Below, piece by piece: positions 2,217 to 57,832 of a stretch of DNA of 64,000 bases (positions are counted from its first letter, which is position 1; each line of letters begins with the position of its first letter). Under the pieces are notes generated by a model that did no database searches, was not told where the DNA came from, and saw only the letters and a list, made by a program, of their open reading frames with translations. Both the position numbers and the translations under genes were made by a program. Source of the DNA: Clytia hemisphaerica (Eukaryota; Cnidaria; Hydrozoa; Leptothecata; Clytiidae); NCBI GenBank assembly GCA_902728285.1, contig CACVBU010000702.1, positions 569,499 to 633,498 on the forward strand, in the 5' to 3' direction.

Positions 2217-2505
2217 CACGTTGTTTTTTTATAAGGAACCTTAACTTTGCTCTGAGCCTGGAGTTCCTTATTTTTACAGAGAATTTCAGTCTCAAAGTTC
2301 CTTATCGAGTTCCTTACCACATAGGAAATTTTGAACTTTTTGCCCATTGAAAGATCAAAATTTGGTCAAATTAGTCCCAATAAGGTACATTATTTTCAAA
2401 TCCACTTATTCTCAGCCTGAGCAGTTCCTTAACAATTCCTTATTTTTTGAACCATTTTCAGCCTCCAGTTCCTTATAAACGTGTTCCTTATAAAAAAAAA
2501 ACGTG
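2217..2505. mobile_element. TA-flanked MITE, 'TTTTTTATAAG' family, GGAAC-type copy
   Basis: Terminal inverted repeats read CACGTTGTTTTTTTATAAGG inward on the left and CACGTTTTTTTTTTATAAGG on the right. The dinucleotide TA flanks both ends (2215-2216 and 2506-2507), as for Tc1/mariner-type insertions. The word next to the core (GGAAC, seen as AGTTCCTTA on the other strand) recurs about eight times inside this 289-bp element. No transposase is encoded. Confidence 0.8.
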
Positions 2506-3745
2506 TACAGTATTGTCGGAAGACAGTTTAGAATCATTTGTTTATCATGATTAAATTACCTATTTATCAGTTTTTGTAAATAAGAAATTTAATGTCATTT
2601 AAATCTGCCTCAAGGTTTTTACTAATTGGTACTTTTCTATTTTAAGCTAATTTCTGGGGATTTCTTAACTTTTCTCCTATTTTATCCTCATTTTTAACGT
2701 CTCTTTTTGGGTAGAAAGAAATTCAAGCTCAAATCAAAGCAAGATCAACATACTGCAAAGCTTTACAAGCTGGAGCTTTTTTACTTTTTCCCTGCAAATT
2801 TATCATAAGATTTTTCATCCACTACTGTAAATTTTTTTATCAAACAAAACAGGAAAGTCACAAATTCGAAATTGCAAAGTATTTATAAAACTGTCAATGA
2901 TTTGTATACATATCCTTTGTCTTTGGGCAAATGGTGGCGGGGAGAATATACTATAGCTTTTTATTTACATGGACTTTAAATATATAAAAGGGGTAAATAT
3001 AAGGATATAATCCTCAGGCAAAAAAACAACATACAAACAAACTTACATGATTTGATGTTTTTTAAGAAATTTATAAGGTGAAAGTTTAGATAGATATCCT
3101 TGTTGCAAAGAAATTACAAACTTATTAAATTACTGTTTATAAAAATTGTTTTCTAAGAAAAGAAAGTGTAGTTCCAAGAAAATATAAAGGGAATAAAAGG
3201 AAGAGGGTCTCCAAAGAGAACTATAATATTTCTTGGAATCCCTCTTTTTTTCTCTCCCGCCTCTTTTTTTTTGTTTTGATTTTTTCGAATACCGAACACA
3301 GTTGGCCTCGCATACGGAAACTCGAATTCGTACGATTTGGCCTGTTTTTGTATTTTGTACCAAAATCGTATAGTCTAAGACTAGCAACTCTACCGACTGT
3401 TAACTCTTTTCGGCAAAAAAACCCGTTTGCGAATTTTCTTCGGCTTTGGGCTTTTTTCTTAGATAGTGATTCGTCTTAGACTATAACATAGTCTAAATTA
3501 GGATATGTTTATTAACTGTAACTAGCCGTATGCGCAGCGTCTCACGCTGCGTGTCCCAATCCAGTGAATCGATACACATCTAAAAAAACTCTAACGGAAG
3601 AAAGATAGCCGCCGATTGATGATAAGATTGAACATTGCATTGCAATTTTTAACCACAATTAAGTAAATGGCTTAGCAAAATTACATTTTAGATCTTTTTA
3701 GCCATCGTGGTTGGACATTCGAGAGTGACTTTAAAAGACTTTGAA
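2506..3745. other. AT-rich sequence with no supported gene
   Basis: I see no splice-bounded frame with convincing composition on either strand. A short stretch after the AG at 2714 stays open, but it quickly becomes F/K-rich and has no donor, so it is not called. Confidence 0.3.
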
Positions 3746-3749
3746 AAGT

Positions 3750-4340
3750 TTTGAAAGTAATAAGGAGGCGATATTGTAAACAGAAAGTTTTAAAGAGCAT
3801 CTGAATAAGAATTCTTTAAAATAAAAAATAAAATTTGGGAAGAAGGTTGATTTTAAACCATCAAGTTCCAAACTTGCTGTATAAAATAGTATCTTGAGGT
3901 CTCAAAGTTAGTCTAGTGGTACTCGAGGTACCTAAGGCACTCCCGCATGGTCGGATGACGCTTGCACCTTAACGTAAATGTTGTTTAGGTTTTTTCGAAG
4001 CGTTTCGATATAGAAAATAAGATGGGGAATGGTCAAATGGTCCCAATTATTGAAGAATCGAAAAATTTCGAAAAACCTAATTTTTCAGCCAATTTTCATG
4101 ATTTTGATGACGTCACAGAAATAAAAATTTGAATAACTTCTATTAGAAGAAAGCTTTTGACTTCAAATTTTCACTAGAGGTGTAAATCATCAAAAGGAAG
4201 TGATCCACGAAAAAAAAATTGAAATTATTTGCTGACGTCAGCATATTTCAGCCAAAACGGTTTTTTTGCAAAATTCGCTGAAGTCAGCAAAGAAGTTTAA
4301 TTTAGTAGAGCTTTGTTAGATTTTTGAAAACCTTAGTTTA
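3750..4340. repeat. Dispersed repeat, copy 1, with a tRNA-like A box
   Basis: About 175 bp from 3750 (ttttgaaagtaataaggagg …) recurs at 4541-4715, ending in both copies with 'gttagtctagtggta'. That segment fits the RNA polymerase III A box of tRNA genes (TRGYNNARNGG). In this copy the following B box is degraded. A ~300-bp segment rich in 'gacgtca' words separates it from the right part (gctttgttagattttt, ~4310), which is also shared with copy 2. It looks like an old SINE-type or composite repeat. Confidence 0.5.
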
Positions 4341-4540
4341 CAAAACGTTGTAAAAACACACGTTTTGGCGTATTAAAATATACATTAGAGAGACAAAGTG
4401 AAAGTTTAAAATATATTCTCACCATAACCTTGAATGAAATAACTAATTTCACGCATGCCACAGTTGGCTTGCTAGTTAAAAAGAATGCACATTCTTCAAA
4501 AAGACCAGAGTTCAAACCGGGGCAAAGTATAATATAAAAC

Positions 4541-4835
4541 TGTTTTGAAAGTGATAGGGAGCCGCTATTGTAAATTTAAAGGTTTAAAGAACATCTGAAT
4601 AAGAAGTCTTCAAAATGAAAAATTATATTTGGGAAGAAGGTTGATTTTAACCTATCAAGCTCCAAACTTGTTGTATGGAAAATAGGGGTCTCAATGTTAG
4701 TCTAGTGGTAGGAAATCTGCATAAGAGGTGCAAAAATATGATGGTTCAACGCCATGAAGAGGAGGCTTTGTAGGGCTTTGTTAGATTTTCGAAAACTTTT
4801 TACAAAACGTTAGCGTATTAGTATATAGATTTTGT
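4541..4835 (+). repeat. Dispersed repeat, copy 2, with tRNA-like A and B boxes
   Basis: This is paralogous to 3750-3930. 'ttagtctagtggta' (~4698-4711) matches the pol III A box, and 'ggttcaacgcc' (~4743) matches the B-box consensus GGTTCGANNCC at about the spacing found in tRNAs. No cloverleaf closes, so it is not a tRNA gene. A tRNA-derived SINE promoter is the simplest reading. Confidence 0.5.
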
Positions 4836-7800: not shown

Positions 7801-8020
7801 TTACCCGGATTATCTCTTAACGAGCATTGAACTCCTTCACCATGTTTCCGACGTACTTACTCTATCGTCTTAAATCCACTAGTGACCCCCGTCCTTAATA
7901 TACTTTTGAAAATCTAAGTAGCCTGGTTTTAGTCTATAGTGACCTTAACTTAACTCAAACGGGGTTTAGGGGTGTCCAGAGAATTCCCCCTGTTGAATTA
8001 CCACCTATATACTTTTTTGT
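4836..8020. other. No supported gene; one coding-like relic and simple C/G runs
   Basis: Most of this stretch shows no coding signal. At 5354-5548 (plus) there is an uninterrupted 64-codon frame (…ELLKAQIKAMPNVKHF…) of protein-like composition. It has no splice partners and a stop just upstream, so it may be a fragment of an old retroelement. Poly-G and poly-C runs occur at ~6370 and ~7423. A possible 47-bp plus exon at 7648-7694 (acceptor ttcacag, donor gtatgt) is too short to support. Confidence 0.3.
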
Positions 8021-8022
8021 AA

Positions 8023-8978
8023 AGTAACACGAAGTACAGAAAATAACAAGGAGTAACGAGAAGTAACGAGAAGTAACGAGAAGTAACGAGGAGTAACGAG
8101 AAGTAACAAGAAGTAACGAGGAGTAACGAGAAGTAACGAGGAGTAACGAGAAGTAACGAGGAGTAACGAGAAGTAACGAGGAGTAACGAGAAGTAACGAG
8201 GAGTAACGAGGAGTAACGAGAAGTAACGAGGAGTAACGAGAAGTAACGAGGAGTAACGAGAAGTAACGAGGAGTAACGAGAAGTAACGAGGAGTAACGAG
8301 AAGTAACGAGGAGTAACGAGGAGTAACGAGAAGTAACGAGGAGTAACGAGAAGTAACGAGGAGTAACGAGAAGTAACGAGGAGTAACGAGAAGTAACGAG
8401 GAGTAACGAGAAGTAACGAGGAGTAACGAGAAGTAACGAGGAGTAACGAGAAGTAACGAGGAGTAACGAGAAGTGACGAGGAGTAACGAGAAGTAACGAG
8501 GAGTAACGAGAAGTAACGAGGAGTAACGAGAAGTAACGAGGAGTAACGAGAAGTAACGAGGAGTAACAAGAAGTAACGAGGAGTAACGAGAAGTAACGAG
8601 GAGTAACGAGAAGTAACGAAGAGTAACAAGAAGTAACGAGGAATAAGGAAGAGTAACGAGAAGTAACGAGGAGTAACAAGAAGTAACAAGAAGTAACGAG
8701 GAGTAACAAGAAGTAACGAGGAGTAACAAGAAGTAACGAGAAGTAACGAAAAGTAACAAGGAGTAACGAGGAGTAACGAGAAGTAACGAGGAGTAACAAG
8801 AAGTAACGAGGAATAAGGAAGAGTAACGAGAAGTAACGAGGAGTAACAAGAAGTAACGAGGAATAAGGAAGAGTAACGAGGAGTAACAAGAAGTAACGAG
8901 GAGTAACGAGAAGTAACGAGGAGTAACAAGAAGTACCGAGGAATAAGGAAGAGTAACGAGGAGTAACAAGAAGTAACT
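8023..8978. repeat. 10-bp minisatellite (aagtaacgag/gagtaacgag), ~0.95 kb
   Basis: This is an almost perfect array of ten-base units. The two forms aagtaacgag and gagtaacgag alternate over most of its length, making a 20-bp higher-order unit. The right-hand third also has aagtaacaag and the off-register variant 'gaataaggaa'. Because the units carry no stop in several minus frames, long repetitive open frames arise (S-R-Y-S-S-L-L-L-V-T type). I regard them as artefacts, not genes. Confidence 0.97.
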
Positions 8979-9014
8979 AAAGTGTATCGAGATATAATAA
9001 TTGACATTTTAATT

Positions 9015-9280
9015 GCCTAAAACTTGATAAAAAGGCCACCATACTAACTTTTCCACGTCTTTTTAACATCCAAAAGACGTCCATAGCTCAAAAAAATAGA
9101 AAAATTTAGAAATTTTCAAAAGAAAACAGCCGTAGAATTATCAATAAACGTCCCTTAAAGTCAAAAGAGTTCTACTCGAAGATGGGTAGGAGCTATGACC
9201 TTAAGCTTAAAACTGGATAAAAGGGCCACCATACTCACTTTTTCACGTCTTTTTCACGTCCAAAAGACGTCCATGAAACA
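9015..9280. repeat. Direct repeat pair around 'aaaagacgtccat'
   Basis: A ~75-bp segment at ~9018-9085 (…aaaaaggccaccatactaac…ccaaaagacgtccat) recurs at ~9200-9275 with a few changes. Both copies lie directly right of the minisatellite. No coding frame is present. Confidence 0.6.
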
Positions 9281-9762: not shown

Positions 9763-11218
9763 AACCATAAAACTCTGTAGGTAACTTGAACACACATCCA
9801 TTGGAATTTAAAAGAGAATACTAAAATTACAACATTACAGTGCAAATTTGAAAACGATTTGAGTAGTTTTTGTGGTGTTATGTTTATGGCTGAAAATGAT
9901 CCTGTTTTGTATTCATCATTGTTGACTGGCGACCGTTCCTTTTGATTCTTCAAACCCGACACAGATTTTTTACAAACATATCACTATGAGAATTCAGTCA
10001 GTAAAGGATACTAAAACACAATTCCTGTAAAAATTTGAACAATATTGGAGAAATTTTCACATTGTTATGGATGAAAATGCATGATTGTTTTTGGACTTTG
10101 TCGTAATTTCATTGCGGCTTGCGACCGTTCCTTTTGATTTTTCAAACCCGACACAGATTTTTTACAAACATATCACTATGAGAATTCAGTAAAGGATACT
10201 AAAACACAATTCCTGTGAAAATTTGAACAATATTGGAGAAATTTTCACAGTGTTATGGCTGAAAATGATTGTTTTTGGACTTTGTCGTAATTTCATCGCG
10301 ACTGGCGACCGTTTCTTTTGATTTTTCAAACCCGACACAGATTTTTTACAAACATATCACTATGAGAATTCAGTAAAGGATACTAAAACACAATTCCTGT
10401 GAAAATTTGAACAATATTGGAGAAATTTTCACAGTGTTATGGCTGAAAATGATTGTTTTTGGACTTTGTCGTAATTTCATCGCGGCTTGCGACCGTTCCT
10501 TTTGATTTTTCAAACCCGACACAGATTTTTTACAAACATATCACTATGAGAATTCAGTAAAGGATACTAAAACACAATTCCTGTGTAAATTTGAACAAGA
10601 TCGGAGAAATTTTCACAGTGTTATAACTGAAAATTATATATTTTTTTGGACTATCTCGTAATTTCATTGGCTGGGGCGACCATTCCTTTTGAAGATTTTT
10701 CAAACCCAAAACTGGTTTTTTCCAAATATACCACTATTTATTACATACACACTATTTTACCATTTTATTTGGTTTATCCTACTCTCCTCCAAGTATTATC
10801 CCAACAGAAAAATAATGCTTAGCTAAAAGCCATGGCCTCTAATTTAAGCTATTTTTCTCCCCAAATTTTTATTCGGACAATCAAATCAACGGCGCATCAT
10901 GGCTTCGCTATTGGCAAGTTTAGAAAAAAATAAATTTATAAGAACTTGGAAATATTCACTTCTGAGTGGGCGGGGGGTGGGGTTGGTTCTTTAGGCAAGA
11001 AAGTGCATGTGTAATCACTTAGAAGAGCTAAACTTTCAGCTGGTTTATTTATTTGTTAAGATTATTTCTCATACTCGCTCTGCAATAGAATTATTACTTT
11101 GCTTTCTGATCTGTTATGATTAGTAGTTCTAACACAACTAACTCAACAAGCTCATCTTTCACATCTTTTAATCTCTTCAGCCGGAGCTTCCAGCGCAGCT
11201 GGTTTATTTCTACTTATG
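9763..11218. repeat. Dispersed repeat R1, copy A, with internal ~185-bp tandem units
   Basis: It begins 'ccataaaactctgtag' and contains about five tandem units of 184-191 bp, each starting with a variant of 'ctggcgaccgttccttttga'. It then continues into a unique right part that ends 'ccagcgcagctggtttatt'. The same left start, unit and right end recur at 22.57-23.13 kb and 25.34-26.12 kb. No coding capacity is visible. The structure suggests a non-autonomous element that amplified an internal segment. Confidence 0.8.
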
Positions 11219-13740: not shown

Positions 13741-13856
13741 AAATCAGATCGCTATTATTTTCTGTTATCCACCCTGAAGCTGTAATGGGGTGGGGTAGTC
13801 TGATGAAAAAATTTTCTCAATTTCACGAGGACACACACGCACTTCGTTATAAATCG

Positions 13857-16834: not shown

Positions 16835-16916
16835 CGCGCTTTTTTTATATAAGAATACACTTCATAAGAATATCCATGATGAACTGGATTTACATCATTC
16901 TTATAAAAAAAGCGTG
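16835..16916. mobile_element. 82-bp MITE, 'TTTTTTATAAG' family, GAAT-type copy
   Basis: The ends are CGCGCTTTTTTTATATAAGA and, inverted, CACGCTTTTTTTATAAGAAT. TA flanks both sides (16833-16834, 16917-16918). The word ATAAGAAT occurs three times in 82 bp. The central sequence (ccatgatgaactggatttacat) is shared, inverted, with the element at 47998-48247. Confidence 0.8.
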
Positions 16917-16918
16917 TA

Positions 16919-20695: not shown

Positions 20696-20699
20696 TTTT

Positions 20700-22350
20700 T
20701 ATTTATTTTCTTATAAGCATATACTTTATAAGAATCAACTCAATAACTCTTGATAGACGGTGATATACCTTTCGGTAATTATATCTTACAAAGTAAACAA
20801 GGGACAGCAAACAATATGAGCATATTTGTTTTTCTTATAAGCATATACTTTATAAGAATCAACTCAATAACTCATGATAGACGGTGATATATCTTTCGGT
20901 AATTAGTTCTTACAAAGTAAACAAGGGATGGCGAACAATATGAGCATATTTATTTTTCTTATAAGCATATACTTTATAAGAATCAACTCAATAACTCTTG
21001 ATAGACGGTGATACACCTTTCGATAATTAGTTCTTACAAAGTAAACAAGGGACAGCAAACAATATGAGCATAATTATTTTTCTTATAAGCATATACTTTA
21101 TAAGAATCAACTCAATAACTCACGATAGACGGTGATATATCTTTCGGTAATTAGTTCTTACAAAGTAAACAAGGGATGGCGAACAATATGAGCATATTTA
21201 TTTTTCTTATAAGCATATACTTTATAAGAATCAACTCAATAACTCTTGATAGACGGTGATATATCTTTCGGTAATTAGTTCTTACAAAGTAAACAAGGGA
21301 CAGCAAACAATATGAGGATATTTATTTTTCTTATAAGCATATACTTTATAAGAATCAACTCAATAACTCACGATAGACGGTGATATATCTTTCGGTAATT
21401 AGTTCTTACAAAGTAAACAAGGGATGGCGAACAATATGAGCATATTTGTTTTTTCTTATAAGCATATACTTTATAAGAATCAACTCAATAACTCATGATA
21501 GACGGTGATATATCTTTCGGTAATAGTTCTTACAAAGTAAACAAGGGATGGCGAACAATATGAGCATATTTATTTTCTTATAAGCATATACTTTATAAGA
21601 ATCAACTCAATAACTCTTGATAGACGGTGATATACCTTTCGGTAATTAGTTCTTACAAAGTAAACAAGGGACAGCAAACAATATGAGCATATTTATTTTT
21701 CTTATAAGCATATACTTTATAAGAATCAACTCAATAACTCACGATAGACGGTGATATATCTTTCGGTAATTAGTTCTTACAAAGTAAACAAGGGATGGCG
21801 AACAATATGAGCATATTTATTTTTCTTATAAGCATATACTTTATAAGAATCAACTCAATAACTCATGATAGACGGTGATATATCTTTCGGTAATTAGTTC
21901 TTACAAAGTAAACAAGGGACAGCAAACAATATGAGCATATTTATTTTTCTTATAAGCATATACTTTATAAGAATCAACTCAATAACTCACGATAGACGGT
22001 GATATATCTTTCGGTAATTAGTTCTTACAAAGTAAACAAGGGATGGCGCGCAATATGAGCATATTTATTTTTCTTATAAGCATATACTTTATAGAATCAA
22101 CTCGCAATAACTCTTGATTGACGGTGATATACCTTTCGGTAATTAATTCTTACAAAGTAAACAAGGGATGGCGTAAAGTATGAGTATTTTTACTTTTCTT
22201 GTAAGCATATACTTTATAAGAATCAAATAAATAACTCTTGATAGACGGTGAGATACCTTTCGGTAATTAGTTCTTACAAAGTAAACAAGGAACGGCGCAC
22301 AATGTGAGCATATTTATTTCTTATAAGCATATACTTTGTAAGAGTTCTTA
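20700..22350. repeat. Satellite array of 13 x 124-bp units carrying 'TATAAG' palindromes
   Basis: Units start cttataagcatatacttta at 20710, 20834, 20958, 21082 and so on, a steady 124-bp period. Each holds the inverted repeat ttcttataa…tttataagaa and the words 'gatagacggtgatat', 'ctttcggtaatta' and 'caaagtaaacaaggga'. Two variants (…gggacagcaaac and …gggatggcgaac) alternate for much of the array, giving a ~248-bp dimer. The last two units are more diverged. The ATAAGCATA word links it to the MITE family described at 51249-51724. Confidence 0.95.
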
Positions 22351-22565: not shown

Positions 22566-23129
22566 AACCATAAAACTCTGTAACTTGAAAATGAAACTTT
22601 CAAACACACAGCCATTGGAATTCAAAAGAGAATACTAAAATTACAACATTACAGTGCAAATTTGAAAACGATCTGAGTAGTTTTTGTGGTGTTATGTCAT
22701 ATGGGTATGGCTGAAAATGATCCTGTTTTGTATTCATCACTGTTAACTGGCTGGCGACCGTTCCTTTTGATTTTTCAAACCCGACACAGATTTTTTACAA
22801 ACATATCACTATGAGAATTCAATAAAGGATACTAAAACACAATTCCTGTGTAAATTTGAACAAGATTGGAGAAATTTTCACAGTGTTATGGCTGAAAATG
22901 ATCGTTTTTGGACTTTGTCGTAATTTCATCGCGGCTGGCGACCATTCCTTTTGATTTTTCAAACGCGACAACAGATTTTTTTAAACATGACATATCAGAT
23001 GAGAATTCAGTAAAGGATACTAAAACACAATTCCTGGGTAAATTTGAACAAGATTGGAAAAATTTTCACAGTGTTATGGCGGAAAATGATCGTGTTTGGA
23101 CTTTGTCGTAATTTCATCGCGGCTGGCGA
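22566..23129. repeat. Dispersed repeat R1, copy B
   Basis: It starts 'ccataaaactctgtaa' like copy A and contains two and a half ~185-bp units (ctggcgaccgttccttttga …). It stops inside a unit at 'ggctggcgat', where an unrelated repeat begins. Confidence 0.75.
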
Positions 23130-25338: not shown

Positions 25339-26119
25339 CTGGCGACCATTCCTTTTGATTTATTTCAAACGCGACACAGATTTTTTACAAACATATCACT
25401 ATGAGAATTCAGTAAAGGATACTAAAACACAATTCCTGTGTAAATTTGAACAAGATCGGAGAAATTTTCACAGTGTTATAACTGAAAATTATATTTTTTG
25501 GACTTTGTCGTAATTTCATTGGCTGGGGCGACCGTTCCTTTTGAAGATTTTTCAAACCCAAAACAGGTTTTTTCCAAATATACCACTATTTCTTACATAC
25601 ACACTATTGTACCATTTTATTTGGTTTATCCAACTCTCCTCCAGGTATTATCCCAACAGAAACAATAATGCTTTATAGCCAAAAGCTGTGGCCTCTAATT
25701 TAGGCTATTTTTCTCCCGAAATTTTATCCGGACAATCAAATCAACGGCGCATCATGGCTTTGCTATTGGCAAGTTTAGAAAAAAATAAATTTATAAGAAC
25801 TTGGAAATATTGACTTCTGTTTATCTCCTTTAGCTCCAATTTTGAACTTTTTAGTCGAGGATGAGTGGGCGGGGGTGGGGTTGGTTCTTTAGGCAAGAAA
25901 GTGCATGTGTAATCACTTAGAATAGCTAAACTTCCAGCTGGTTTATTTATTCATTAAGATTATTTCTCATACTCGCTCTGCAATAGAATTATTACTTTGC
26001 TTTCTGATCTGTTCTGATTAGTAGTTTGTGGGCAACGTTCTAACACAACTAACTCAATAAACTCATCTTTCACATCTTTTGATCTCTTAAGCCGGAGCTT
26101 CCAGCGCAGCTGGTTTATT
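25339..26119. repeat. Dispersed repeat R1, copy C
   Basis: One unit of the 185-bp type is followed by the same unique right part as copy A, ending 'ccagcgcagctggtttatta'. Relative to copy A it keeps a ~60-bp segment (tttatctcctttagctcc…) and the piece 'tgtgggcaacgttc' that A lacks, so A carries deletions. Confidence 0.8.
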
Positions 26120-26383: not shown

Positions 26384-28584
26384 TTACATGAAATTAACCA
26401 TCACAACCTCATTGACTTTATCCACAATTTTTTCAGATAGTTGATTCGTATCATTCCCAATATCGTTCATGTTGATTTCCATGAAGCCTTTGTCCTTGAT
26501 TTTTGACTTTTCAGTTGATTGATATGCCTGTCTCATTTCGTCTCTCTCCGTCTTTAACCAGTCCTCCCCGCCGGGTAAAATGGTAACGAAAAGAAAGTAT
26601 ATGTTTTTAAGTCGGCAGGTACAAAATGCATAAAACATAATACATATTGCATAATGCATAATAGTATTGTGTAATTTACAGAGCGATTTTATATTTTCTA
26701 AAACTCTCCTTTGTAGAGGCTAAAACCGTATAAAACCGTCTTTAGAAGAGTTTCTTAAGTAACCATTCCAATCAGAGGGATTTCCCCAGACATGATATTT
26801 ACTTTTCGAATCCGAACAAAAGAGAAAACATTCGAATCATAACAACAGAAAGGGTTTTCCCTCAGCATACTGTAAGTAATAAGAAAATGCAAACAGATCA
26901 GAAAGATTTCCCCCTTGTTTCTTTCTCAAAAAAGGTATAAATACACAAACATTCGAATGTAAAAAGATTGGAAGTCTATTTTCTTTGATCTAGTTTTCGC
27001 ATGAAGCTCTTTAACTTATACATATTTTGTATATTGGCTGGATATTGGCTTATCTAACAAAAAGCATTCACATGGTTAAACATGGTTAATGCTTTGTAAG
27101 AGGGAAAACCCGTCGAAATTTATTAGCAATATTGTTCGTTCGAAAAGATCTCTGAGAAAAAACCCAGAATAAAGATCTTGCTATAAAATTTACGTTTTCG
27201 AGTTAGAAAAGTAATATACGGAGGAGATATTTTCGTGTTTTTTCTACACTATACTACGTTCTGTAAAATACAACTATGAAAACCAAAATGGTGACAAGCA
27301 TTTTCAGTGGATCATGGATTTTCTTCATCATCCAAAATTCAAATTTACAGCTTTCTTCCCTTTATTTTCTGGTAGAAAATGGTATATTTGTTTTGTTAAA
27401 AGTATTATCTTTCAAATTCTCCTTAATATAGCCTCTAAAATTGGCATTTTTCAAATATTATGCATTATGCATTATGCAATATTAATAAAATATGCATTAT
27501 GTTTTATGCATTTTGAACCTGCCGGTTTTTAAGTGCGTATTTCTGCCCCGTTTGAAACATTGTACCAACATTTCCATGATCAGGATAGTCTCCAATTAAC
27601 ACCAGGAATTTCACAGTACCATCTTCACGCCAATCTTCTTTGGGACCTTCCCATTCACTCCATTTGAAACCAAGTCCTAATAATCCATCCTCCTTATCTT
27701 CAAAGCCCCTTCCAACACTGGCCCTTTGACTGTTAATGAAATTCTGCAAAGCTGCAAGATCTGAGGTAAATGGGATCTTGTCGAGATGTCCAACTTGTCC
27801 TCGAATCTTATAAGCGATAAAACCGATTTGAAGATCAGCATCTCTCTTGGACTCATCAAAGATTCGTTTTTTGATATTTTCAGTGATCATCTGAATTTTG
27901 TTCTTTGCCATCTCGATATAACCACCCATCGATCCTGTTGTGTCGAGCACAAAGCAAAGTCTTATCTTGAGTTTTGTCGCTGCTTGAACAACACTAAACA
28001 CTCTAAGCGTCAAATCCCTTTTCGATTTTTCGTACTCCTCAAGATAGATCTTATCCATCTCCAAGTCCCATGCTTCATCCATATTGGCAAGTTGTTTGTC
28101 TTTGTACAGCACTTTTTCTGTTACAACACGACCAGCTGCACTTGCTAGTCCCTCCAATTTTTGTTCACCGAGATAGAAGCTTTGCAAAGCACCTGGTAGA
28201 AGCTTCGGGTCATCAGCAAGGACGAAATAAGGAAAATATTCGAAGATTCCTTCAGTGAAATATCCAATTCCAATAGCAAGTGTTTGCACATTCATACTTT
28301 CAGCGTGGTAGAGACTTGTTTGAAGCTTTTTAGGAGCAGAAGGATAACCATCTGTCAGCACGATGATGGTTTTGCCGACTTGTGAGCTTGCTCCATCCGT
28401 AATGAACTGCGTAGCATAGAAAATGCTGTCCGATAGATTGGTTTCATCTTGATCGAAGGTGTTAGAGCGTCATACAGCTTGGCTTTGGTTTTGTTGTCCC
28501 ATTCATCATTGAAATCTTTGACCAGCTTCGTTACGGATCCGGAGGTGATTATGCTGAACAAGACGTTGATGTTTTGTAGAGCGG
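26384..28584 (-). pseudogene. Tandem von Willebrand A-domain gene, 3' part, broken
   Basis: On the minus strand an acceptor (tgtattcacag) at 28585 opens into an A-domain lacking its N-terminal half: INVLFSIITSGSVTKLV, then IIVLTDGYPSAPKK and TLAIGIGYFTEGIF. A linker leads to a second A-domain with a complete metal-site motif, CFVLDTTGSM, and later FLVLIGDYPDHG. The DxTGSM form is that of the vwkA-type A-domain family. A-domains bind protein partners through a divalent metal; the partner is unknown. Two lesions break the frame. A one-base loss (or two-base gain) lies at 28456-28470, after LYDAL and before FDQDETNLSDSIFYA. A 912-bp transposon also sits at 26613-27524 inside the last strand of domain 2. 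Removing the element and one duplicate leaves the frame continuous through IYFLFVTI to TAA at 26386-26384. The 5' exons, including the first metal motif, were not found up to 34 kb. A sequencing error could explain the frameshift, but not the insertion. Confidence 0.8.
26613..27524. mobile_element. 912-bp DNA transposon inserted in the A-domain exon
   Basis: The ends are CGGCAGGTACAAAATGCATA (left) and, inverted, CGGCAGGTTCAAAATGCATA (right). The match runs about 30 bp before ending in palindromic 'tgcataatgcat' words. A perfect 10-bp target duplication, gtttttaagt, lies at 26603-26612 and 27525-27534. A 9-10-bp duplication fits Mutator-like elements, but no transposase is present to confirm that. 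The exactness of the duplication argues for a young insertion. The right end also places CAG|GT in the host gene's sense strand. Confidence 0.9.
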
Positions 28585-43500: not shown

Positions 43501-44842
43501 ACAGTTTTCAGTTTTCACGAGGAAGTGAAAAATGCCCCTTTTAGCTATTTACCCCTTGTAAATGGTTTTTCTCAGAATAACTTTTTTTTTCTCATCCAAT
43601 AACAACTGCACGCTTTTTTATAAGAATGTGTTTTTTATTTGTATTTTTCAGGATCTCACACCCATAAAATGCAATTCCGCCTGTTTTTGTTAAAATACGG
43701 CTTTGAAGGGTCAAAACTCTATTGACTTAATTTTTGACGTATGGTGCTAATGTTTCTTAATCTCCATCAAATTTGTGGTATCTTAGTATGTAATATGACC
43801 ATGTTTTGAGAAGGTCAATTTTCAGATTTTATTGGCCACTACCCATTGTTACCATGTTAAGTGAGCTTGAAAATAGATATTTGAGAGCCTTACGATTCCT
43901 TTCGAGTCTATAACCACAAAGAAAAAAAATAATTTTATATACCTACAGCCTACAGGTATGTAATAGATTTTATGACCTGAAATTCAATTGTGTAATCTCT
44001 AGGTCCGAAAAACTTGATTTTTTAAAGGGATTTTTTATGAAACTTTGAATAACTTTGGTGAGCCCAAAGTGCGACTTTGCTCGTAATTTGATTGGCTTAA
44101 TAATAACCTTGAAAAAGCAATTGCTTACCCTTAGAAATAGTGTTTTTCAGCCAGAAACAGCTATTTTGTCCACTTTTTGAAGCTCATTATCTCGAGTTAG
44201 GAACAGAAATCTCTATATCTATCTCTAATCTTCATTTTTTTAGAGCTTTCCAAAAGTATACAACAGGTCTCTTTTTTCTCGAGCTAAAAATTTCATTAAA
44301 TTTTGACCCTATGAATTTTGCCTGGGACCGTCATATTTGTCCGAAAAGCACACCAAAGTGTCAGAGAAAAATTAGCACCTATGGTATTTTGATTCCCCTA
44401 TACCTCAGTCTTAACTTTCCAAAAATGTATAACAAGTGCTTTGACTAAAATTATCGAACGATCTTACAAATTTCCCCCTACTATTAGACCAAAAATGACG
44501 ATTTCTACATCAAACTGTGTAATGTCCAATATACTCTGCATTGACACCTAAAGGGTTAAGGAAAAACTGAAAACCTTTCTAATGGATAAAACATTGGGTA
44601 TTTTGCAAAAAATCTCGCTTTTAGGACACCGGACCCACCGGGAACCCATCCCACTGAAAAAATTGGCAAAAATATCTTCCCCAGTGGAAAATTATATTCT
44701 AATTTTTGTCCCGCTGAAAATAACCAGATAAGCTGCAAAATATTGTGCTGTTTTGTCCACCCCCACTGAATTTTCTGGCAAGAAAATAATGGAATCCAAG
44801 TCCCCAGCCATAAGAAATATGGGAATATCAATCCCCATCGAG
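40518..44842. other. Downstream region: poly(A) signal, diverged repeats, no supported gene
   Basis: An AATAAA at 40941 may end SLC25A19 transcripts. A ~375-bp direct duplication (~41395-41535 and ~41775-41930, both starting 'aagtagggtaccatcat') belongs to the repeat whose head, 'cttttctcgagattggctca', also occurs near 56.37 and 59.98 kb. Two tiny plus-strand exon look-alikes at ~42832-42866 and ~42921-42976 are in phase (…HEIRKVFK / ETISASSALIATISFRF, stop). Their 54-bp spacing and lack of partners leave them uncalled. Confidence 0.3.
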
Positions 44843-44844
44843 TA

Positions 44845-47922: not shown

Positions 47923-47997
47923 GTAGGTTTTTTAACTCGGGGGTGGGGGCACTTGATTTATAAACGACCGTACGTGTGGCCCAAAATCCCAAAATTA

Positions 47998-48247
47998 CAC
48001 GCTTGTTTTTTATAAGAATGGTGTAAATCCATTTCATCATGGACATTCTTAACTTTTTTGGGAAAATCATCCTAAAATATTCTTACAGCATTCTTAGGTT
48101 AATATCCTAATTCAGACTAGATTTAACATTTTAGTACATACGTTTCAAAATCCCATGATGGTGATATTCTTAGCATATTCTTAATTTTTTGCCCATTTTC
48201 ATCATGAACATTCTTATAAAGTGAATTCTTATTTAAAAAAAAGCGTG
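47998..48247. mobile_element. 250-bp MITE, 'TTTTTTATAAG' family, GAAT-type copy
   Basis: The ends are CACGCTTGTTTTTTATAAGA and, inverted, CACGCTTTTTTTTAAATAAG. TA flanks the left end; the right flank has become TG. The word ATTCTTA/TAAGAAT occurs eight times in 250 bp. It shares 'gtaaatccatttcatcatgg' with 16835-16916. Confidence 0.8.
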
Positions 48248-50836
48248 TGGGGAAGGCCTTTGAAATTGAACCCTTACAGTGCAGAGAAAATTTGGGCGAA
48301 AATTAACCTTTACAGTGGATTTTCTTGATAACTTTTGACCATTTTAAGGCTTCTTTGCTCATTTCGACCCTTACAGTGCACTTTGGGAAGTTAAAAAAAG
48401 ACCCTTAAGGATCGCAAGTACGGTAGGTCGTTTACCTTGATTGCCCCCCCCCCCTCCTCCGGGAAGTTTTATAATTTCATAATCTCATCAAAAAATAAAT
48501 CTTACATGTTTTTTATAAGCATATCTAGGCTCAGATATGACAAAAATTTAAGCATATGTTAAGCATTACCTTGAGCCTACATTTTGGCTGTATTTTGCTG
48601 GAATCTTAGGTTGAAAGTAGCTCATGTTGTAAGAGTTCCAAACAAAAAATCATTCAAAAGCTGTAAAACTATAATTCTGACCCAAATGCCTAGATTTTCA
48701 CCAAATTTTGGTAAATTATGTCTATATTTTATTTTTGTAGACCCTAATAAGTGATCAACGTCTCAAAAATCAGCAGAAATACTTTAAATGATCTTAATTG
48801 CCTTAAAAAATTGAAACTATCTAATGGATATTATTAACACAATCTTCTAGCTAAATAAGAGCAATGATACTCTATTTTTGAGAGCGAAAGGTTAGGTTAC
48901 CCATATCAAAATTGCTTCCTTGAAGAAATTGAGGCCACTCCTTCAATAAATTTTCATTTGGGGGTTTAAAAACTCCATGATTCCATTTACCCCACTCCGA
49001 ATGTTACAACCCATTCTCAAAGACCCGGTAGGATTTTTACAGCCAGTGGGGGGTAAAAATAGCGGACCAAAACTCGATTTGATATTGCTATGTTTTTATG
49101 GCTGGGGAGTTGAATTCCTTTGGTTTCGAGCAAATATTCTGCAGCGAGGATTTGCTTATCTGATTATTATCAGTGAAGACAAAAAGCCCCGCCTTGATAC
49201 ACGTTTCATCTACCATGGCATACTGGATTACTTGGAGGAGACAAATGAAGTATAATGAACGAATTTAACAGCTCAAAGAAGTAACTCTTTGCTTCTACAG
49301 TATGGTCCCATTTACCTCGGCTTAGAGTCCTACCAACCCTAACCCTAAATTACTCGAAATTTTCTCGAAGGATACAGTTTATTTGGTTCATTTTCAGGCA
49401 GGGGCGACCTGACAGGGGGTGCAGAAAGATCTGAGAGGGGCGTCAATAAAGCTTTTCATGGGGGAGCCAAAATTTGTTGATGTTTAATTGGGCGATGTGG
49501 CGCCCTTCGACACGTTTATAGCGCGCCTTCTATATAAAATGCAATGTTATTTTTTTTACCTGTGGCCCTTTCTTTTATTTTACGCTCTTGCATCTTTTCT
49601 CTGTAATTTTTTCATAAAACTACTATGAACATTGAATCGCGAAAAGTCAAAGGGTCAAAGTAAGAGAAATGTTGTGTATCCACCAGGGGTTAAAGAGGAT
49701 GCTCACCCAAAATGAGAGATTGCCAAAAAGATCGAAACTTGATGATGCTTGCTGTGGTTTTTGTGGTCTTATGATGAATAATTTTCTCCTTTTTAGAAGA
49801 TCGTTTAAGCTGTTTGACCTTTCTTACACCCAAATTACAAAAAACCCTTATTCCTGCCAATTTTGGGGCCTCTTTCAGCCATTGATCTTTTAAGGAGAGT
49901 AAAAAATATAAGACCAACGGCGCAAAAGTTTAAAGATTATCAGGTCATTTTTCTGATGAATTTTTAGAAAACAAAAATATAGACCAAATCGACTTGCTAG
50001 GTATAAAATTTTCATTCCAAGTATCAACAGCTCATGTTTTTTATTAGAGGAGCTTTATTTGTTGCTAAATCGGTATAAATTGGGGCATCTTTAGACATTT
50101 TAAAAGTTGAAAATTAAAAACTTTTCCTTGTTCCGAAAACTATGACATTTCAAATTATAACATCATTGCTTGTTTTCCTTACTGGAGTGAGATTCGTTCT
50201 TTCTTTTGTTTAAGAATTTTTTTGTAAGCAAACGGTGTGAAAGATCCTTTAAGCTTGAATTGTAAAAATCATACTTAAGGAATTTTATAATTATTTTATT
50301 TTTTATTCAATTTAAGCTGTGAAGTAGTTTGCCATAGTTAAGAATATAAACATAAAAGGCCTTAGTACTGATATCAAATGAGTCACCAATAATGTCATAT
50401 GATTAGGTTTTTTTTTAGTTGAATTAAAAATTGAAAAGAAAGAGATCTAATTAGATCTATTCCAACAGAATTACTGATGCTGGTCTTTTATTTACAAGCA
50501 TTCGTTCTTATCTGTTTTTTAATCAGGGTCAACTTTCAACCATCAACCTTTTTTAGGCATAGATTTTTGTTTGTTGTAAGCTTTTTCAAAACATTTTTAT
50601 GATCATGAACAGCTTGGTGCGTGAACTTAAATAGAGGGTTTTTAATGTTATTTCAACTTTCAGCAATGTTTTTCCAGATTTTACTTCATTCTAGTCCCGG
50701 GGGAGGAACTCAGGTGAAATTGGGACAGGGTAGGATTTTTGCTTATTTTGGACAATTTCAGGTTGGAAATTGCATTTCACGCACGTCTACATTTTGTCAT
50801 TTTGTTCCAAATTTACCAAACATTAATATCTGACAG
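48248..50836. other. Repeat fragments and low-support frames
   Basis: At 48505 a left end CATGTTTTTTATAAGCATAT preceded by TA marks a truncated 'TTTTTTATAAG' MITE. At ~48977-49255 a plus frame ends EDKKPRLDTRFIYHGILDYL…NEV, stop, after an AG (~49171); it looks protein-like but does not fit the phase of the neighbouring candidates. Two adjacent 'ccctaa' units at ~49338 are too few to be telomeric. Confidence 0.3.
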
Positions 50837-50882
50837 GATCTACTTCTCAAGCTCCAGCGGGACGTCCACGTCAGCTGTCAAG
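50837..50882 (+). CDS. Candidate internal exon, unrecognised
   Basis: An acceptor (atctgacag) is followed by 46 GC-rich bases and a donor (TCAAG|gtcggt). Read in the phase left by 47828-47922 it gives G-STSQAPAGRPRQLS and two bases. The Ser/Pro/Arg composition suits a disordered linker. Joined to the AG at 52970 it would continue VISSK and stop. It is short and isolated, so it could be chance. Confidence 0.25.
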
Positions 50883-51248
50883 GTCGGTGCCCCCCACCGG
50901 GGTTCTGGTGCTCCTTTTTGATGGTCCTATGGTTCATGCAATATATGAATTTTCTCATGTAAACGATTGTAAATTTGGAGATAAATATCTAACTTTTAAG
51001 ACATCAGAGGCAAGAGCAGTTTCTCAATCAACATTTACAAAAAATTTAATTAAAAAAGTTTTAATTCTCAGAAAAATAAGTCTGTCATTCAGAATTTCTT
51101 CTAGGAAAAGAAATTTTGTAAACTTGCCAACACAAATTATTAAGGTTATCGTTATTTTTTTTCCAAGAAAAGTTCTAAGAACAAAGAAACAAAAACACTA
51201 AAAAACTGTAAACCAAATACCAAATCTCATGCAAGCTGTCTGTTCCTA

Positions 51249-51724
51249 CATGTTTTTTTTATAAGCATAACAGCTTATAAGCATATGAAGGCTTAGCCTG
51301 TTAGACAACAACCGCTTTTTTATCGCGATAAAACAAAGAAAAAATTTGGTTTGTGGGAAGGCACTGGCTAATGAAAATGAAGGCTCAGATTTGCAGATTT
51401 CCTAAGCATATCCTGAGCATATACGCCAGCCTGAAATATTATTCACGTGGTCAATCTTTTTCTCTTCAAAAGGTTTTGAAAGTGGTCAAGTAAAAAAAGA
51501 CACTCCACGACTAGCCACATTCCACTGTTCCAAAAATCTGAACGCCTTTTGAATCGAATGTTAACAAAATTTCAGAAATTGTATATAAAAATTGGGTTGG
51601 GTGAATCAAAGCATAATAATTCATAAGCATATAATAAGCATATGCTATGCCTGGATGTGTTGAAAGCTTAGGCATACTCGAGCCTGACCAAGGGGCATAC
51701 ACTTGCTTATAAAACACAAACATG
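51249..51724. mobile_element. 476-bp MITE, 'TTTTTTATAAG' family, GCATA-type copy
   Basis: The ends are CATGTTTTTTTTATAAGCAT and, inverted, CATGTTTGTGTTTTATAAGC. TA flanks both sides (51247-51248, 51725-51726). AAGCATA or its complement occurs about six times inside, clustered towards both ends. Confidence 0.8.
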
Positions 51725-51726
51725 TA

Positions 51727-53727: not shown

Positions 53728-54601
53728 AGGTATGTGTACACCTTTTTTCCGATTTTTTGTCAAAAAAAATTTTTTCAGTCAAAGTGGAAGAAAAGTTACT
53801 GGATTTCATTTTGGTAAAATCGCGATCTTAAAATCTTTTTTAGATCCAGAGTTATAACCAGTTAAATTTCAAAACAAAGTTCGTCTTATGGTGGATTATT
53901 TACTTAAATAATTGTCTCTTTCGGAAACAACAAAGACAAAAGAGAGAATTCAGCTGATGTTTATTCTCACCTCTATTGAATAGTAATATTTTTGACACAT
54001 TTCACTGATTACTCAAATTAACAGCAATCATCTCGTTAAAAATTTCAAATTGATGTAGAAAAAAACGAAATTTTACCACACCATACTAGTTTTAACGAGG
54101 TTAAAGTCACCCATAGCATTTAGCTATGAACTTAATTTTTTTTTATATTTCCGGCAAAGAATTGAACTAAAAAAGTGTCTTAGGATTTTTTTTCTAATCG
54201 AGTTAAAGCTTCACAATTTCAGGTTAAGTGGAAAAAACTCGAAAAATGAATGATTTTTTCCAAATTTTAACAATTTTTAAGTTTTCTCGAGTTAAAGTCG
54301 ATCCAAAAAAAAATCCTAAGACATTTTTTTGGTTCAATCTATTGGGAATATAGTATCGAAATTATTTTTCAAATTTCAAAAGCTATGGGTGACTTTAACT
54401 TCTTTGAAGTAAGTAAGGTTAAAATTCTTAAGATTTTAATTATATCCTGCCCAGTTTTTTTAAATTCAGCTGAAACTTTTACCATTAGAAAGAGAATATT
54501 ATTGGCTTTCAGAAAATATATACTTTTGATGTATAAAAATTTGTTGTTCTAAAGATATGATCAATTAAAGAGAATGTGTCAAGGAAGGTGAACACATACC
54601 T
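53728..54601. mobile_element. 874-bp MITE with nested palindrome, TA target
   Basis: The ends are AGGTATGTGTACACCTT and, inverted, AGGTATGTGTTCACCTT, flanked by TA (53726-53727, 54602-54603). Inside, 54100-54119 (gttaaagtcacccatagc) pairs with 54382-54399 and the pairing continues inward (cttaggattttttt…). That gives a second palindrome within the first. Confidence 0.8.
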
Positions 54602-54946
54602 TAGACGTAGGGTAATAATTCACTGTTGCTTTTTATATAAACTTAATGGGTCGATTTTTTCATGTTTTTCAGCAATCTCAGAAATTGAACTTTAACTTTA
54701 TTCAGGCACATCTGGTAGCCTCAGTAGGGTTTCCATGACCAGCAAAATCTGAAATCGAAATATTTCAAGATCTAGACTCAAAGTATTTTTCCTTTCACTT
54801 TCAAACAATTTTTTGACACTCGAGAAGGCAAAGTTTGGCAATTTACACCCAATCAGTTCTAATGTCTGTGATTTTTTTTCAATGGGCCCTTTTTGAAGAT
54901 TAAGATCTAATGAAGATAAAATTTCTATTTATTAGGAGACTGAAGG

Positions 54947-55043
54947 ATGGCATCCACCAGTGGCGGATCTGCAAAAAAATCGTCTTCTAAACGAAAAAGA
55001 GCAACTGCAGAAGAAAACAAGCGTTCCCACAAAGACTATGAAG
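54947..55043 (+). CDS. First coding exon of a large unrecognised gene
   Basis: The exon is preceded by an acceptor (tttctatttattag) at 54935, so a 5' untranslated exon lies upstream. An in-frame TGA at 54941-54943 shows that the ATG at 54947 is the start. Thirty-two codons read MASTSGGSAKKSSSKRKRAT and AEENKRSHKDYE, then one base before a consensus donor (AAG|gtgagt). KKSSSKRKR is a plausible nuclear-localisation signal. The open phase fits only a two-base continuation, which the exon at 61356 supplies (GAT, aspartate). Confidence 0.85.
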
Positions 55044-55598
55044 GTGAGTATTATTAGATGCTTTTCTATCTTTATCAATTGGGCAAAATCTATTGGAGGA
55101 ATGGAGGATTCCTCTGTAGAATTTAAAAGAGTATTTATGATGCAGAAGGTATTCAAAGATTTTATTTTCTGAAAAAAAAAACGTAAAGACAGCTTTTTAG
55201 AAAAGTTACACAATCAAAAGGAGGAAAATGAGTACAGTAAACCCACTCCCCCCACGGGGAGAAAAATGAGCATGTACTGCTTAAACTAAGCACCTACACT
55301 TTAATAAATTAATTTGTTACTAACCAACTAAATGAAGAGGTGTCTAATCGACGAAATTCCAAAAAAGACCCCATTTTTACTTTAACTACTTTTCATGATC
55401 TTTCAGATGAAATGGCCGAAGTTTGATTTTGAAAACTTAAAAAAAAGTTTGCTTGCAGGAGAGTTGTACTGAACATTGACGTCATCATAAATTGCTTCAA
55501 AAAGGTTCAAACCTTTCAATTCAATTGTGGTTTTTTTTTCCAGAACCTCTGAGCCAAATTTCAACTACATATTATTCTTTCTAGGGTTTTAATGAGCT

Positions 55599-55786
55599 AC
55601 CTTATCGGGGAAAACTTCGTCGGGGAAAAGTGACGAAATTTTGGCCAAGTGACGAATATTTTTTCCCGACGAAAATTTTCCCCGGCCTTAATGCATTTAC
55701 CAAAACCAGCAAGTGACGGATATTTTTCCCCGACGAAAATTTTCCCCGACGAAAATTTTCCCCGACGAAGTTTTCTCCGATAAGGT
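55599..55786. mobile_element. 188-bp palindromic element in intron 1 of the large gene
   Basis: The ends are ACCTTATCGGGGAAAACTTC and, inverted, ACCTTATCGGAGAAAACTTC. The interior repeats 'ccccgacgaaaattttcccc' and its inverse about five times, so nearly the whole element can fold. Confidence 0.85.
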
Positions 55787-57706
55787 AAGTCTACCATAGA
55801 CTTAAAGAGTAATTTTCTTTTGAAAACGAAATCTAACCTTTCAGCAAAAAATTCTGTAACTTTTGATATAATTTGAAAATAATAGTGGTTTTGTGTTTGT
55901 TGAAAAGACATTTATGAATGGAATGATACCAAATACAAAAAAATCCCAAAAATTTGAAAATGAAGATAAAGGAGAAACATATCAATTTGCTGAAGAGCTG
56001 TGTTGTTATAACCATTTTCACACAAGATTTAAGAATATCGTCATGTGAAATTTTTTTCTCCAAAACGTTAATTTAGTCAAAAGATATAGCCCAAAATTTA
56101 TCGTTAACTTTAAAATTCACCAAAAAATAACAGAAAGGGACTCAACTGGTCAACCAGACAGAAGTTATAAGCTGTATTTTTGACTGAATAAATACTTTTT
56201 GAATTTTTTTTTTCATAGTCTGCGATAACCCTCTAAGATTAAAAAGTTCCTAATATGAAATGAAGATTATAGGACAATTCTACAAGAAGTTGAATTTTTT
56301 TTTTTGGACCATCAACCTCGGAGGTCCTTCAATTTAATTTAACGTTTGTTCGTTCGTTCGTCTGTTACCAGCTTTTCTCGGGATTGGCTCATTAGTTTTT
56401 TCTGATTTTTTGCATAGTGATGCAAAATGACAGTACCCAAAAAGTGACGATGCCTGATTTTCGAGAAAAAAAAATTTTGTGTTAAATGCTTTATTAATTT
56501 TTTCTGATTTTTTGCTTAAAGACAGAGAGCAAGTTCCTCCAAGAAGTGGCTGAAGCTATTTTTTTGCGGAAAATTCGTAAAAATCGGATTTTCTTATTTT
56601 TAGCTGTTAGGTACAGTGAGTAAGACTTTAAGATCTATCATAGCGTCAGCCCCCTTCTAGTTGGCCAAACAAAGGTGGGGCTAAAGGCTAAACATGCTTC
56701 AAATTTAATAGATACTTTCATAAGTACTTAATGGTTGGTTTCAATTCCTCAAATTAAAGCTCATGAAGCTGAAAAACTTTCCCCTGCGGCGCAATATTTT
56801 TATATAAAATGAGCAATATAATTTATCTTAACCTTGGAACTGCAACACACGTTGAATAACCCTTTTTTGTGGAACAACATTTTAAAAGTATTGAGGGTCG
56901 AAAGCCCTCGGGGATACCAAAAACTTCATGAATCTTTGAGGGGACTTAAAACTCAGGGGGGCCTAAACCCAGGCTGACGCTATGTTTATCTTTACAGGAA
57001 AGAAAGAGTTGTTTTTGTTTATTCCCAGAATCGGGCATCGTTTAATTTCAATTTTATATGAGGCTCCGCTCTAAAACATTGGAAAGCCAGCGTGAAACAA
57101 GTTCCCTACTACCTATAGATGCTAATCAAAAACAAGATTCGCACAAATGCGACTAAATATTTCCCCTTACACTTGCAGATGGACTGCCTGATCGAAAAAA
57201 AAACGTTTCAACTTGAGGCCGTCCAGGCTTGCGCACCGCACTGGCCTCGACTTCAGTAACTTTCAAATTATTTATTATTTAAAGATCTGATTGTAGCAGT
57301 TTAAGATTTTGAAAAAAATGAAAACTCGACCCCAGGCCCAAAAATCGAAATTTTCAAAAAAGAAATATGGTTTGTCTCTTAACCAATCAGATTGCTTATA
57401 TTTTTCAAGTTCAGGAAAGGAAAACAAAATTCGAGTTATTGAGCCAAAAAAGGGGAACATTCGATATATGGATGTTTTTTATAAGAGTTTATTAGGAAAT
57501 TTTCATGCTGCCAACGAATTTGTTCGAGTTAAGGAGACGTTCGAATAATAGAGGTTCGAGTTATGGAGACTCTACTGTATTTAAAAAAGTAAGCTCATCT
57601 CCAGGATAAGATGATAAAAACTTCGGGCATTACGATACGCTTATAAAAAAGTGTAGGATAAAAAAAATAGAAAAAAGGGCTCGGTACTGAAAGGGTTAAC
57701 AGCATA
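55787..57706. other. Intron sequence; dispersed repeat fragment
   Basis: At ~56340-56480 lies a plus-oriented copy of the 'ttcgtctgttaccagctttt…attggctcattag' repeat, found also at ~59955 (plus), ~41225 (plus, diverged) and ~18085 (minus). No exon is supported. Confidence 0.4.
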
Positions 57707-57832
57707 CACTCTTTTTTTATAAGAACAATCAGGCTTAGACTGAAACAATAGGTCTATTATTCTAGACAATAGAAAATTTAAGAACAAGCCTAGGCTTAAC
57801 TCAAATTTCATGGTTCTTATAAAAAAAGAGCG
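57707..57832. mobile_element. 126-bp MITE, 'TTTTTTATAAG' family, GAAC-type copy
   Basis: The ends are CACTCTTTTTTTATAAGAAC and, inverted, CGCTCTTTTTTTATAAGAAC, flanked by TA (57705-57706, 57833-57834). AAGAAC occurs three times, and 'aggcttag(a)ct' twice in inverted form. Confidence 0.8.

What the first reader, a model, noticed from the sequence alone, without database searches (positions are those of the whole stretch)
2217..57832. A TA-target MITE family in which each copy repeats its own private word
Elements at 2217-2505, 16835-16916, 47998-48247, 51249-51724 and 57707-57832 (plus a truncated one at 48505) share TA flanks and the terminal core C(A/G)(C/T)G-T-rich-ATAAG. The 4-5 bases just inside the core differ: GGAAC, GAATR, GAATG, GCATA and GAACA. 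In each copy that same private word, with its TAAG context, recurs through the interior in both orientations (about 8 times in the first, 8 in the third, 6 in the fourth, 3 in the shortest). Terminus and interior therefore change together. Possible causes are gene conversion within a copy, or several transposase-binding specificities each paired with arrays of their own site. I know of subterminal repeats in other elements, but not of this copy-specific switching of one word on a shared core.
Basis: seen in the sequence. Interest (0 to 1): 0.8.

Follow-up and report, generated by a model that had tools for sequence, protein, structure and literature searches.

The report
DNA hitchhikers with private address words
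Thousands of short, gene-less jumping-DNA copies in this genome share one layout of binding-site slots, but each lineage fills its slots with its own short word, most likely because the protein that moves each lineage reads a different word; close precedents exist in plant transposons, so this is a striking variant of something known.

Summary
The window lies in a 417-Mb eukaryotic genome. Its MITEs belong to a clan with thousands of exact ends (three class patterns 1,221, 1,731 and 3,610; reversed controls 0) with AACA, GAAC, AATR or CATA after TAAG. The words are subfamily-specific, not copy-specific. Classes share one layout: right arm TAAG-word at 0, +15, +46-48, +57-59; left arm 0, +31-32 inverted, +65, +76-77 (left arm clear in A and B, thinner in C and D). 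Genome-wide, GAAC-GAAC and CATA-CATA at the first two right-arm sites occur 630 and 1,198 times, often with the same spacer; the two mixed orders occur 0 times. A second subfamily-specific word also covaries. Best reading: site arrays for transposon-encoded DNA-binding proteins, each class keyed to a helper with its own specificity. Anatomy resembles CACTA (En/Spm) subterminal repeats, and the genome holds 106 CACTA-type transposase matches, but no autonomous element with these ends was found, so the superfamily is open. CACTA motif divergence and VANDAL/VANC motifs are close precedents. Gene conversion within copies is disfavoured. Lockstep word replacement at homologous slots was not found in my eight paper searches.

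The parts
2217..2505 (.). E1, class B (word GGAAC) MITE, TA on both sides; TAAGGAAC at 2232(+), 2263, 2297, 2309, 2424, 2468, 2483(-)
   Evidence: same layout as genomic class-B copies L111, L117, L118
16835..16916 (.). E2, class C (GAATR) minimal element: right arm W1-W2 plus companion CATGATG joined to a left end
47998..48247 (.). E3, class C (GAATR) MITE with 8 TAAGAAT sites and companion CATCATG/CATGATG at 48035, 48154, 48200; left flank TA, right flank TG
48505..48570 (+). truncated class-D2 right arm with the W1-W2 interval deleted
   Evidence: compare L129, L130. The right boundary 48570 is approximate
51249..51724 (.). E4, class D1 (GCATA) long MITE; TAAGCATA at 51262, 51278, 51403, 51624, 51635; companion AGGCT/AGCCT at 51289, 51295, 51381, 51428, 51681
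   Evidence: relatives L134, L135
57707..57832 (.). E5, short MITE of class A (sub-type A3, GAACA at one end and GAACC at the other)
   Evidence: relative L027:5775-6047
43609..43632 (+). lone class-C-like end (CACGCTTTTTTATAAGAATG) without a visible partner
57634..57655 (-). lone end TACACTTTTTTATAAGCGTATC

Best explanation
These are non-autonomous, TA-targeting cut-and-paste elements (MITEs). Each arm is an ordered array of TAAG+word sites at fixed spacings, plus a second companion word. Shown: the layout is homologous among classes, the word is nearly uniform within a class, and the sites differ together between classes. [quoted passage not shown] TAAG would be read by a conserved part of that protein and the following 4-5 bases by a part that diverged. 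When a helper lineage changed specificity, only elements whose sites followed stayed mobile, so the slots in a lineage carry that lineage's word. Site spacings near one and three helical turns suggest a multimer lying on one face of the DNA. The most likely helper type is a CACTA/CMC-like transposon, at about 0.45 probability; pogo/Tc1-mariner is the main alternative.
For: Ends: 1,976 exact TACRYGTTTTTTATAAG in 417 Mb against 1 for the reversed pattern. Class ends B 1,221, D 1,731, C 3,610, controls 0. Same-word W1-W2 pairs 630 (BB) and 1,198 (DD), mixed 0 and 0. The spacer ACGTTTA is the commonest in both (83 of 100 listed B rows; 26 of the 55 listed D rows whose letters are shown; hand counts). 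Eight hand-picked right arms align with words at 0/14-15/46-48/57-59; within-copy word identity 3.58 of 4 against 1.97 between classes; 0 of 20,000 site-wise shuffles reach it, though arms of one class are related. Six hand-picked left arms also align, those of D loosely. Companion word covaries: 0.0004 of 40,320 permutations at 7 bases with a consensus as class-A row, 0.0028 at 8 bases, 0.0045 with the real copy L048. One 79% identical empty site aligns across the junction with one TA removed. The genome holds 106 Transposase_21 (PF02992) matches, many with long open frames. Soybean CACTA subterminal motifs differ between subfamilies while the terminus is conserved (PMC2613891, passages).
Against: No autonomous element with these ends was found. 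Five long end pairs (2-6 kb) were neighbouring MITEs or MITEs with nested inserts, and no transposase family was hit by nine frames from four of them, only one reverse transcriptase. 0 of 8 PF02992 places on contigs whose B and D ends were listed in full lie within 10 kb of an exact B or D end. Termini read mostly CACG or CATG, not CACTA/CACTG. Protein binding is not tested. The lockstep is strong but not perfect: sub-type A2 has AATA at its second and AAGA at its fourth site, and 18 of 276 interior sites disagree.
Confidence: 0.72

Rival explanations
1. The words are sites for a regulatory or anti-silencing protein encoded by the helper (as VANC proteins in Arabidopsis VANDAL elements), not for the transposition machinery itself.
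For: VANC21 and VANC6 read different short motifs that are repeated in the non-coding DNA of related VANDAL families, and protein-target coevolution is proposed there (PMC5735166, passages).
Against: Here the first site sits directly against the terminal T-run inside the inverted repeat, and site positions are fixed rather than expanded as tandem repeats, which fits a role in end synapsis better.
Confidence: 0.15
2. The helpers are pogo-like or other Tc1/mariner transposons, which duplicate TA, and not CACTA-like elements. The word-array mechanism is the same.
For: TA target with one empty site; 77 DDE_1 (PF03184) matches, ten of them with the same score and nine of those ten in open frames of 509-511 aa.
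Against: 0 of 6 DDE_1 places on contigs whose B and D ends were listed in full lie within 10 kb of such an end; PF01359 gave 0 matches, though its control did not ring either. Long two-orientation site arrays are, from general knowledge, not typical of this superfamily.
Confidence: 0.3
3. Gene conversion or slippage within each copy spreads its end word through its interior.
For: Words are uniform within a copy.
Against: Hundreds to thousands of copies share each word, site-specific deviations are stable between copies, flanks of sites are not homogenised, and positions are shared between classes.
Confidence: 0.03
4. The classes are unrelated families that converged on a TAAG core by base-composition bias or chance.
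For: All are AT-rich and share a T-run.
Against: Conserved spacers between words (ACGTTTA in both B and D; ATGGCCAAAA-like in A, B, C, C2), near-equal site spacings and a shared order.
Confidence: 0.05

Closest known systems
CACTA (En/Spm, Tam1, Tgm) subterminal repeats bound by TnpA-like proteins
   Same: Short inverted terminus starting CAC, many copies of a short motif in both orientations near the ends, conserved terminus with a motif that differs between subfamilies in one species; the part shared by the En-1 and soybean motifs is TCTTA, the complement of TAAGA (PMC2613891 passages)
   Different: Termini CACG/CATG, 2-bp TA target (3 bp, ATA, in the soybean element), elements mostly 200-500 bp, site positions fixed to a few bases across classes, two covarying words; no linked tnpA/tnpD found
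VANDAL21/VANDAL6 motif arrays read by VANC anti-silencing proteins
   Same: Family-specific short words repeated in non-coding DNA of related elements, differing by a few bases, with proposed protein-target coevolution (PMC5735166 passages)
   Different: VANC targets form tandem repeats; here slots are positionally conserved and include the element terminus. Whether any VANC-like gene exists in this genome was not searched
Tc1/mariner and pogo elements
   Same: TA target duplication
   Different: Different terminal sequence (recalled) and no comparable arrays known to me
ISL2EU (PHIS superfamily)
   Same: 2-bp AT-rich target
   Different: Target AT and termini usually GG (PMC4482050 passages)

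Membership tests
CACTA / CMC superfamily | termini CACTA or CACTG | tested here: not met
   ends are mostly CACG, fewer CATG, some CACT, CACA or CGCG, before the T-run
CACTA / CMC superfamily | 2-4 bp target duplication (CMC range as cited in PMC4482050) | tested here: met
   TA flanks (the end pattern asks for TA) and one 79% identical empty site; one site only
CACTA / CMC superfamily | subterminal short repeats in both orientations | tested here: met
CACTA / CMC superfamily | CACTA-type transposase inside an element with these ends | tested here: inconclusive
   106 PF02992 matches in the genome; 0 of 8 checkable places near exact B/D ends; the other 98 were not checked, and A and C ends were listed for few contigs
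Tc1/mariner including pogo | TA target duplication | tested here: met
   (same limits)
Tc1/mariner including pogo | mariner-, Tc1- or pogo-type transposase inside an element with these ends | tested here: inconclusive
   77 PF03184 matches, 0 of 6 checkable places near B/D ends; PF01359 0 matches but control silent; PF13358 did not complete
ISL2EU | AT target duplication and GG termini | tested here: not met
   TA flanks and CAC termini; definition
VANDAL (Mutator-like) | VANC gene and Mutator-type transposase | not tested
   no search made; used only as a functional comparison
MITE | short, non-coding, high copy, inverted termini, target duplication | tested here: met
   64 complete elements by pattern in held DNA, 84-586 bp; end counts

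The most novel reading that the evidence does not exclude
One genome carries several parallel, mutually exclusive DNA address systems on a common chassis. Each address is a pair of short words placed in the same eight to ten slots and read by its own helper protein, so that related helpers mobilise only their own MITEs. New addresses arise by rewriting the slots together.
Probability: 0.35. Interest if true: 0.72.

Novelty: new variant of a known kind. Interest (0 to 1): 0.52.

Why it matters
How a transposon's DNA-binding protein and its many scattered sites change together is an open question, raised for CACTA elements (PMC2613891) and VANDAL elements (PMC5735166). Here four word classes sit on one homologous layout in one genome, with thousands of copies, shared spacers and no B/D mixtures in the exact test. 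That gives natural matched pairs (class B against D3 differ mainly in the words over the first half of the arm) for testing which bases set specificity, and a way to assign orphan MITEs to helpers by word.

Tried and rejected
Autonomous-element hunt by size: five +/- pairs 2-6 kb apart (C94, C33 for class B; C1, C49, C63 for class D) were fetched and rejected. L105 and L120 hold a complete MITE at each side; L121 holds a complete MITE at its left, and its right end belongs to other DNA with another inward end 1.3 kb away; L106 and L119 look like one MITE with a nested insert. Nine frames from L105, L106, L120 and L121 and one from L017 gave one Pfam hit, a reverse transcriptase in L106; L119 frames were not scanned. 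L017:728 looked gene-like at first and was dropped: the stretch is a MITE end beside other repeats. L037-type ends (40 scored copies of 1,124 candidates, 97-100% over about 138 bp) proved to be a class-A2 arm captured inside another repeat, with shared flanks, so they are one insertion. ISL2EU was rejected on target and termini. Gene conversion was rejected (see rivals). A virus origin was checked: one match in viral contigs, read and judged chance because no second word follows; an exact class-B arm gave 0. A paper search for class 13-mers found none. The first companion-word test used L048, which has a deletion after W4; it was repeated with the class-A consensus and both results are given. 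Pfam on five window frames gave only VWA and reverse transcriptase domains.

Not done: PF13358, PF13359 and PF13843 were asked but did not complete; class-C copies were listed but not fetched beyond those already held; the organism was not identified.
Full report
What was checked. The five elements and the truncated one were read directly and their ends listed. They have the stated terminus: C-R-Y-N, up to a few other bases, a T-run (interrupted in places), and (A)TAAG. Own-word counts in the interiors far exceed dinucleotide shuffles in E1, E3 and E4; in E2, E5 and the truncated copy there is one exact interior word each. No interior holds an exact copy of another class's word. E2 and E3 are the same subfamily.

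Genome scale. The window is G000:C487:569499-633498 of a 417-Mb eukaryotic genome. One strict end pattern occurs 1,976 times, its reversed control once. Class-specific patterns give B (GGAAC) 627+594, D (GCAT) 869+862, C (GAAT) 1,824+1,786, controls 0. In viral contigs the strict pattern occurs once and without a second word. From the 100 places that one search listed (the first contigs, so not a random sample) 80 were sampled; 79 ends were read, the 80th being cut by the fetch (L065). Of the 79, 52 have AACA after TAAG and the rest are spread over 16 other 4-base words.

Word concordance. Among 263 ends found by a loose pattern in the DNA then held, 172 have a class word (A 102, B 37, C 20, D 13). 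Of 293 interior TAAG sites with a class word, 266 agree with the end word; label shuffles average 117, at most 149 in 5,000 (a rerun with another seed reached 154). Loci L001-L008 were dropped because they lie inside L009-L016. Ten of the 172 are copies of one captured A2 arm; collapsed to one, 258 of 276 sites agree, shuffles average 109, at most 156. The disagreements are A to C 10, C to A 5, and one each A to B, A to D, B to C. Copies within a class are related by descent, so the shuffle is not a probability; the independent units are the subfamilies, about eight here. An exact test over the whole genome avoids the sampling: W1-W2 with GGAAC at both sites 630, GCATA at both 1,198, GGAAC then GCATA 0, GCATA then GGAAC 0. 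Other mixed pairs were not counted genome-wide. By hand count of the printed rows, the spacer between the two words is ACGTTTA in 83 of 100 B rows, and ACGTTTA in 26, ACGCTTA in 20 and other in 9 of the 55 D rows whose letters are shown. The words differ while the bases between them are often the same.

Shared layout. Right arms: TAAG-word at 0, +14/15, +46 to +48, +57 to +59, all in the same orientation. Left arms: 0, then inverted at +31/32, about +65 and +76/77. The left layout is clear in A and B, seen in fewer C arms, and thin in D. One search found 76 right arms by an anchored pattern; 21 rows are the captured A2 arm. Eight right arms, one copy each of A, A2, B, C, C2, D1, D2, D3 and chosen by hand, align with few gaps. 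Words within one copy agree at 3.58 of 4 bases on average, words of different classes at the same slot at 1.97; no site-wise shuffle of 20,000 reaches this. In D1, D2 and D3 the fourth core is TGAG or CAAG, not TAAG. D3 against B is the clearest case: the 7-nt spacer is identical and the bases before the third site nearly so, but GGAAC is GCATA at the first two sites, and GCATA replaces GGAAT/GGAAC at the third and fourth. Six left arms, also hand-picked, show similar slots.

Second word. After W2 and again after W4 most subfamilies carry another short word: TAAGGCTT in A, GAGGCTGA/CAGGCTGAG in B, TCATGATG/CCATCATGG in C, CAGGGTGAA/TAGGGTGAA in C2, TAGGCTCA/TGAGCCTA in D2. The slot after W2 matches its own slot after W4 better than those of other subfamilies: 0.0045 of permutations with the real copy L048, which is deleted there, 0.0004 at 7 bases and 0.0028 at 8 bases with the class-A consensus. 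D1 and D3 match poorly, and A2, B and D share AGGCT.

Target. The 43 ends tallied are preceded by TA because the pattern asks for it. For one element, of 18 with flanks, a paralogous stretch at L013:7004-7097 (minus strand) spans the insertion point without a gap at the junction when one TA is taken out; it is 79% identical and reads TG at that place. This supports a 2-bp duplication but is a single site. E3's right flank is TG.

Mechanism. Fixed slots with spacings near 11 and 31-33 bases, a first site abutting the terminal T-run, a constant TAAG and a variable word, and lockstep differences among lineages point to a protein that occupies the slots, most simply a helper-encoded DNA-binding protein. 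That proteins bind here is inference. Gene conversion would predict different uniform words among copies of one subfamily, and would not keep site-specific deviations such as GAAT at B's third site in 10 of 13 B arms (one GAAA; two read out of register by the script). The VANC comparison (PMC5735166, passages read) shows that a non-transposase reader is possible.

Helper. No element with a gene was found: the 64 complete copies recognised by pattern are 84-586 bp, too short for a transposase, and the five long pairs were not single elements with a transposase as far as checked. The genome has 106 matches to Transposase_21 (CACTA tnp2), many in frames of 350-827 aa, and 77 to DDE_1; PF01359 gave none but its control did not ring. 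The B listing covers contigs C1-C99 and the D listing C1-C76; on those, 0 of 8 Transposase_21 places and 0 of 6 DDE_1 places are within 10 kb of an exact B or D end. The C listing covers C1-C29 and holds 0 of 4 such Transposase_21 places near a C end. I prefer the CACTA/CMC reading for its anatomy: CAC start, short terminus, two-orientation arrays, and a TCTTA part shared by the otherwise different En-1 and soybean motifs (PMC2613891, passages read). But CACTA/CACTG termini were tested and not met, so I do not file it as a member.

Novelty. CACTA subterminal motifs that differ between two soybean subfamilies while the terminus is conserved, with coevolution suggested (PMC2613891), and VANC motif divergence (PMC5735166) are close precedents. 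Eight searches of the paper library did not list a report that I recognised as lockstep word replacement at homologous slots; only listings were seen, except three papers read in passages (PMC4482050, PMC5735166, PMC2613891). The library lacks most subscription journals and, as far as I know, Repbase reports.

Noticed in passing
window 20700-22343; L012:2867-3486: A 124-bp satellite whose unit holds TTTTCTTATAAGCATATACTTTATAAGAATC, like a MITE arm with two different words; the same tandem unit lies on another contig at 87-93% identity. It may be a satellite born from a MITE arm.
   Followed up: partly
L037:22-160, L049-L064: A class-A2 MITE arm frozen inside another repeat and amplified with it; 40 scored copies at 97-100%. 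By eye, without a search, L037 continues into a reverse-transcriptase-like frame.
   Followed up: partly
G000, 106 places: A large set of CACTA-type transposase genes, several with open frames of 750-827 aa and some with identical scores.
   Followed up: no
G000:C652, C669, C882, C34, C112, C195, C197, C202, C256, C460: Ten pogo-like transposase matches with the same score, nine in open frames of 509-511 aa and one of 470, suggesting recent activity.
   Followed up: no
window 7955-9016: A long 20-bp tandem array open in three frames on the minus strand.
   Followed up: no
window 27504-28469 (-): An open frame with VWA domains.
   Followed up: no
window 9924-10737, 22749-23129, 25339-25662: A 184-188-bp repeat family present at three places of the window.
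   Followed up: no
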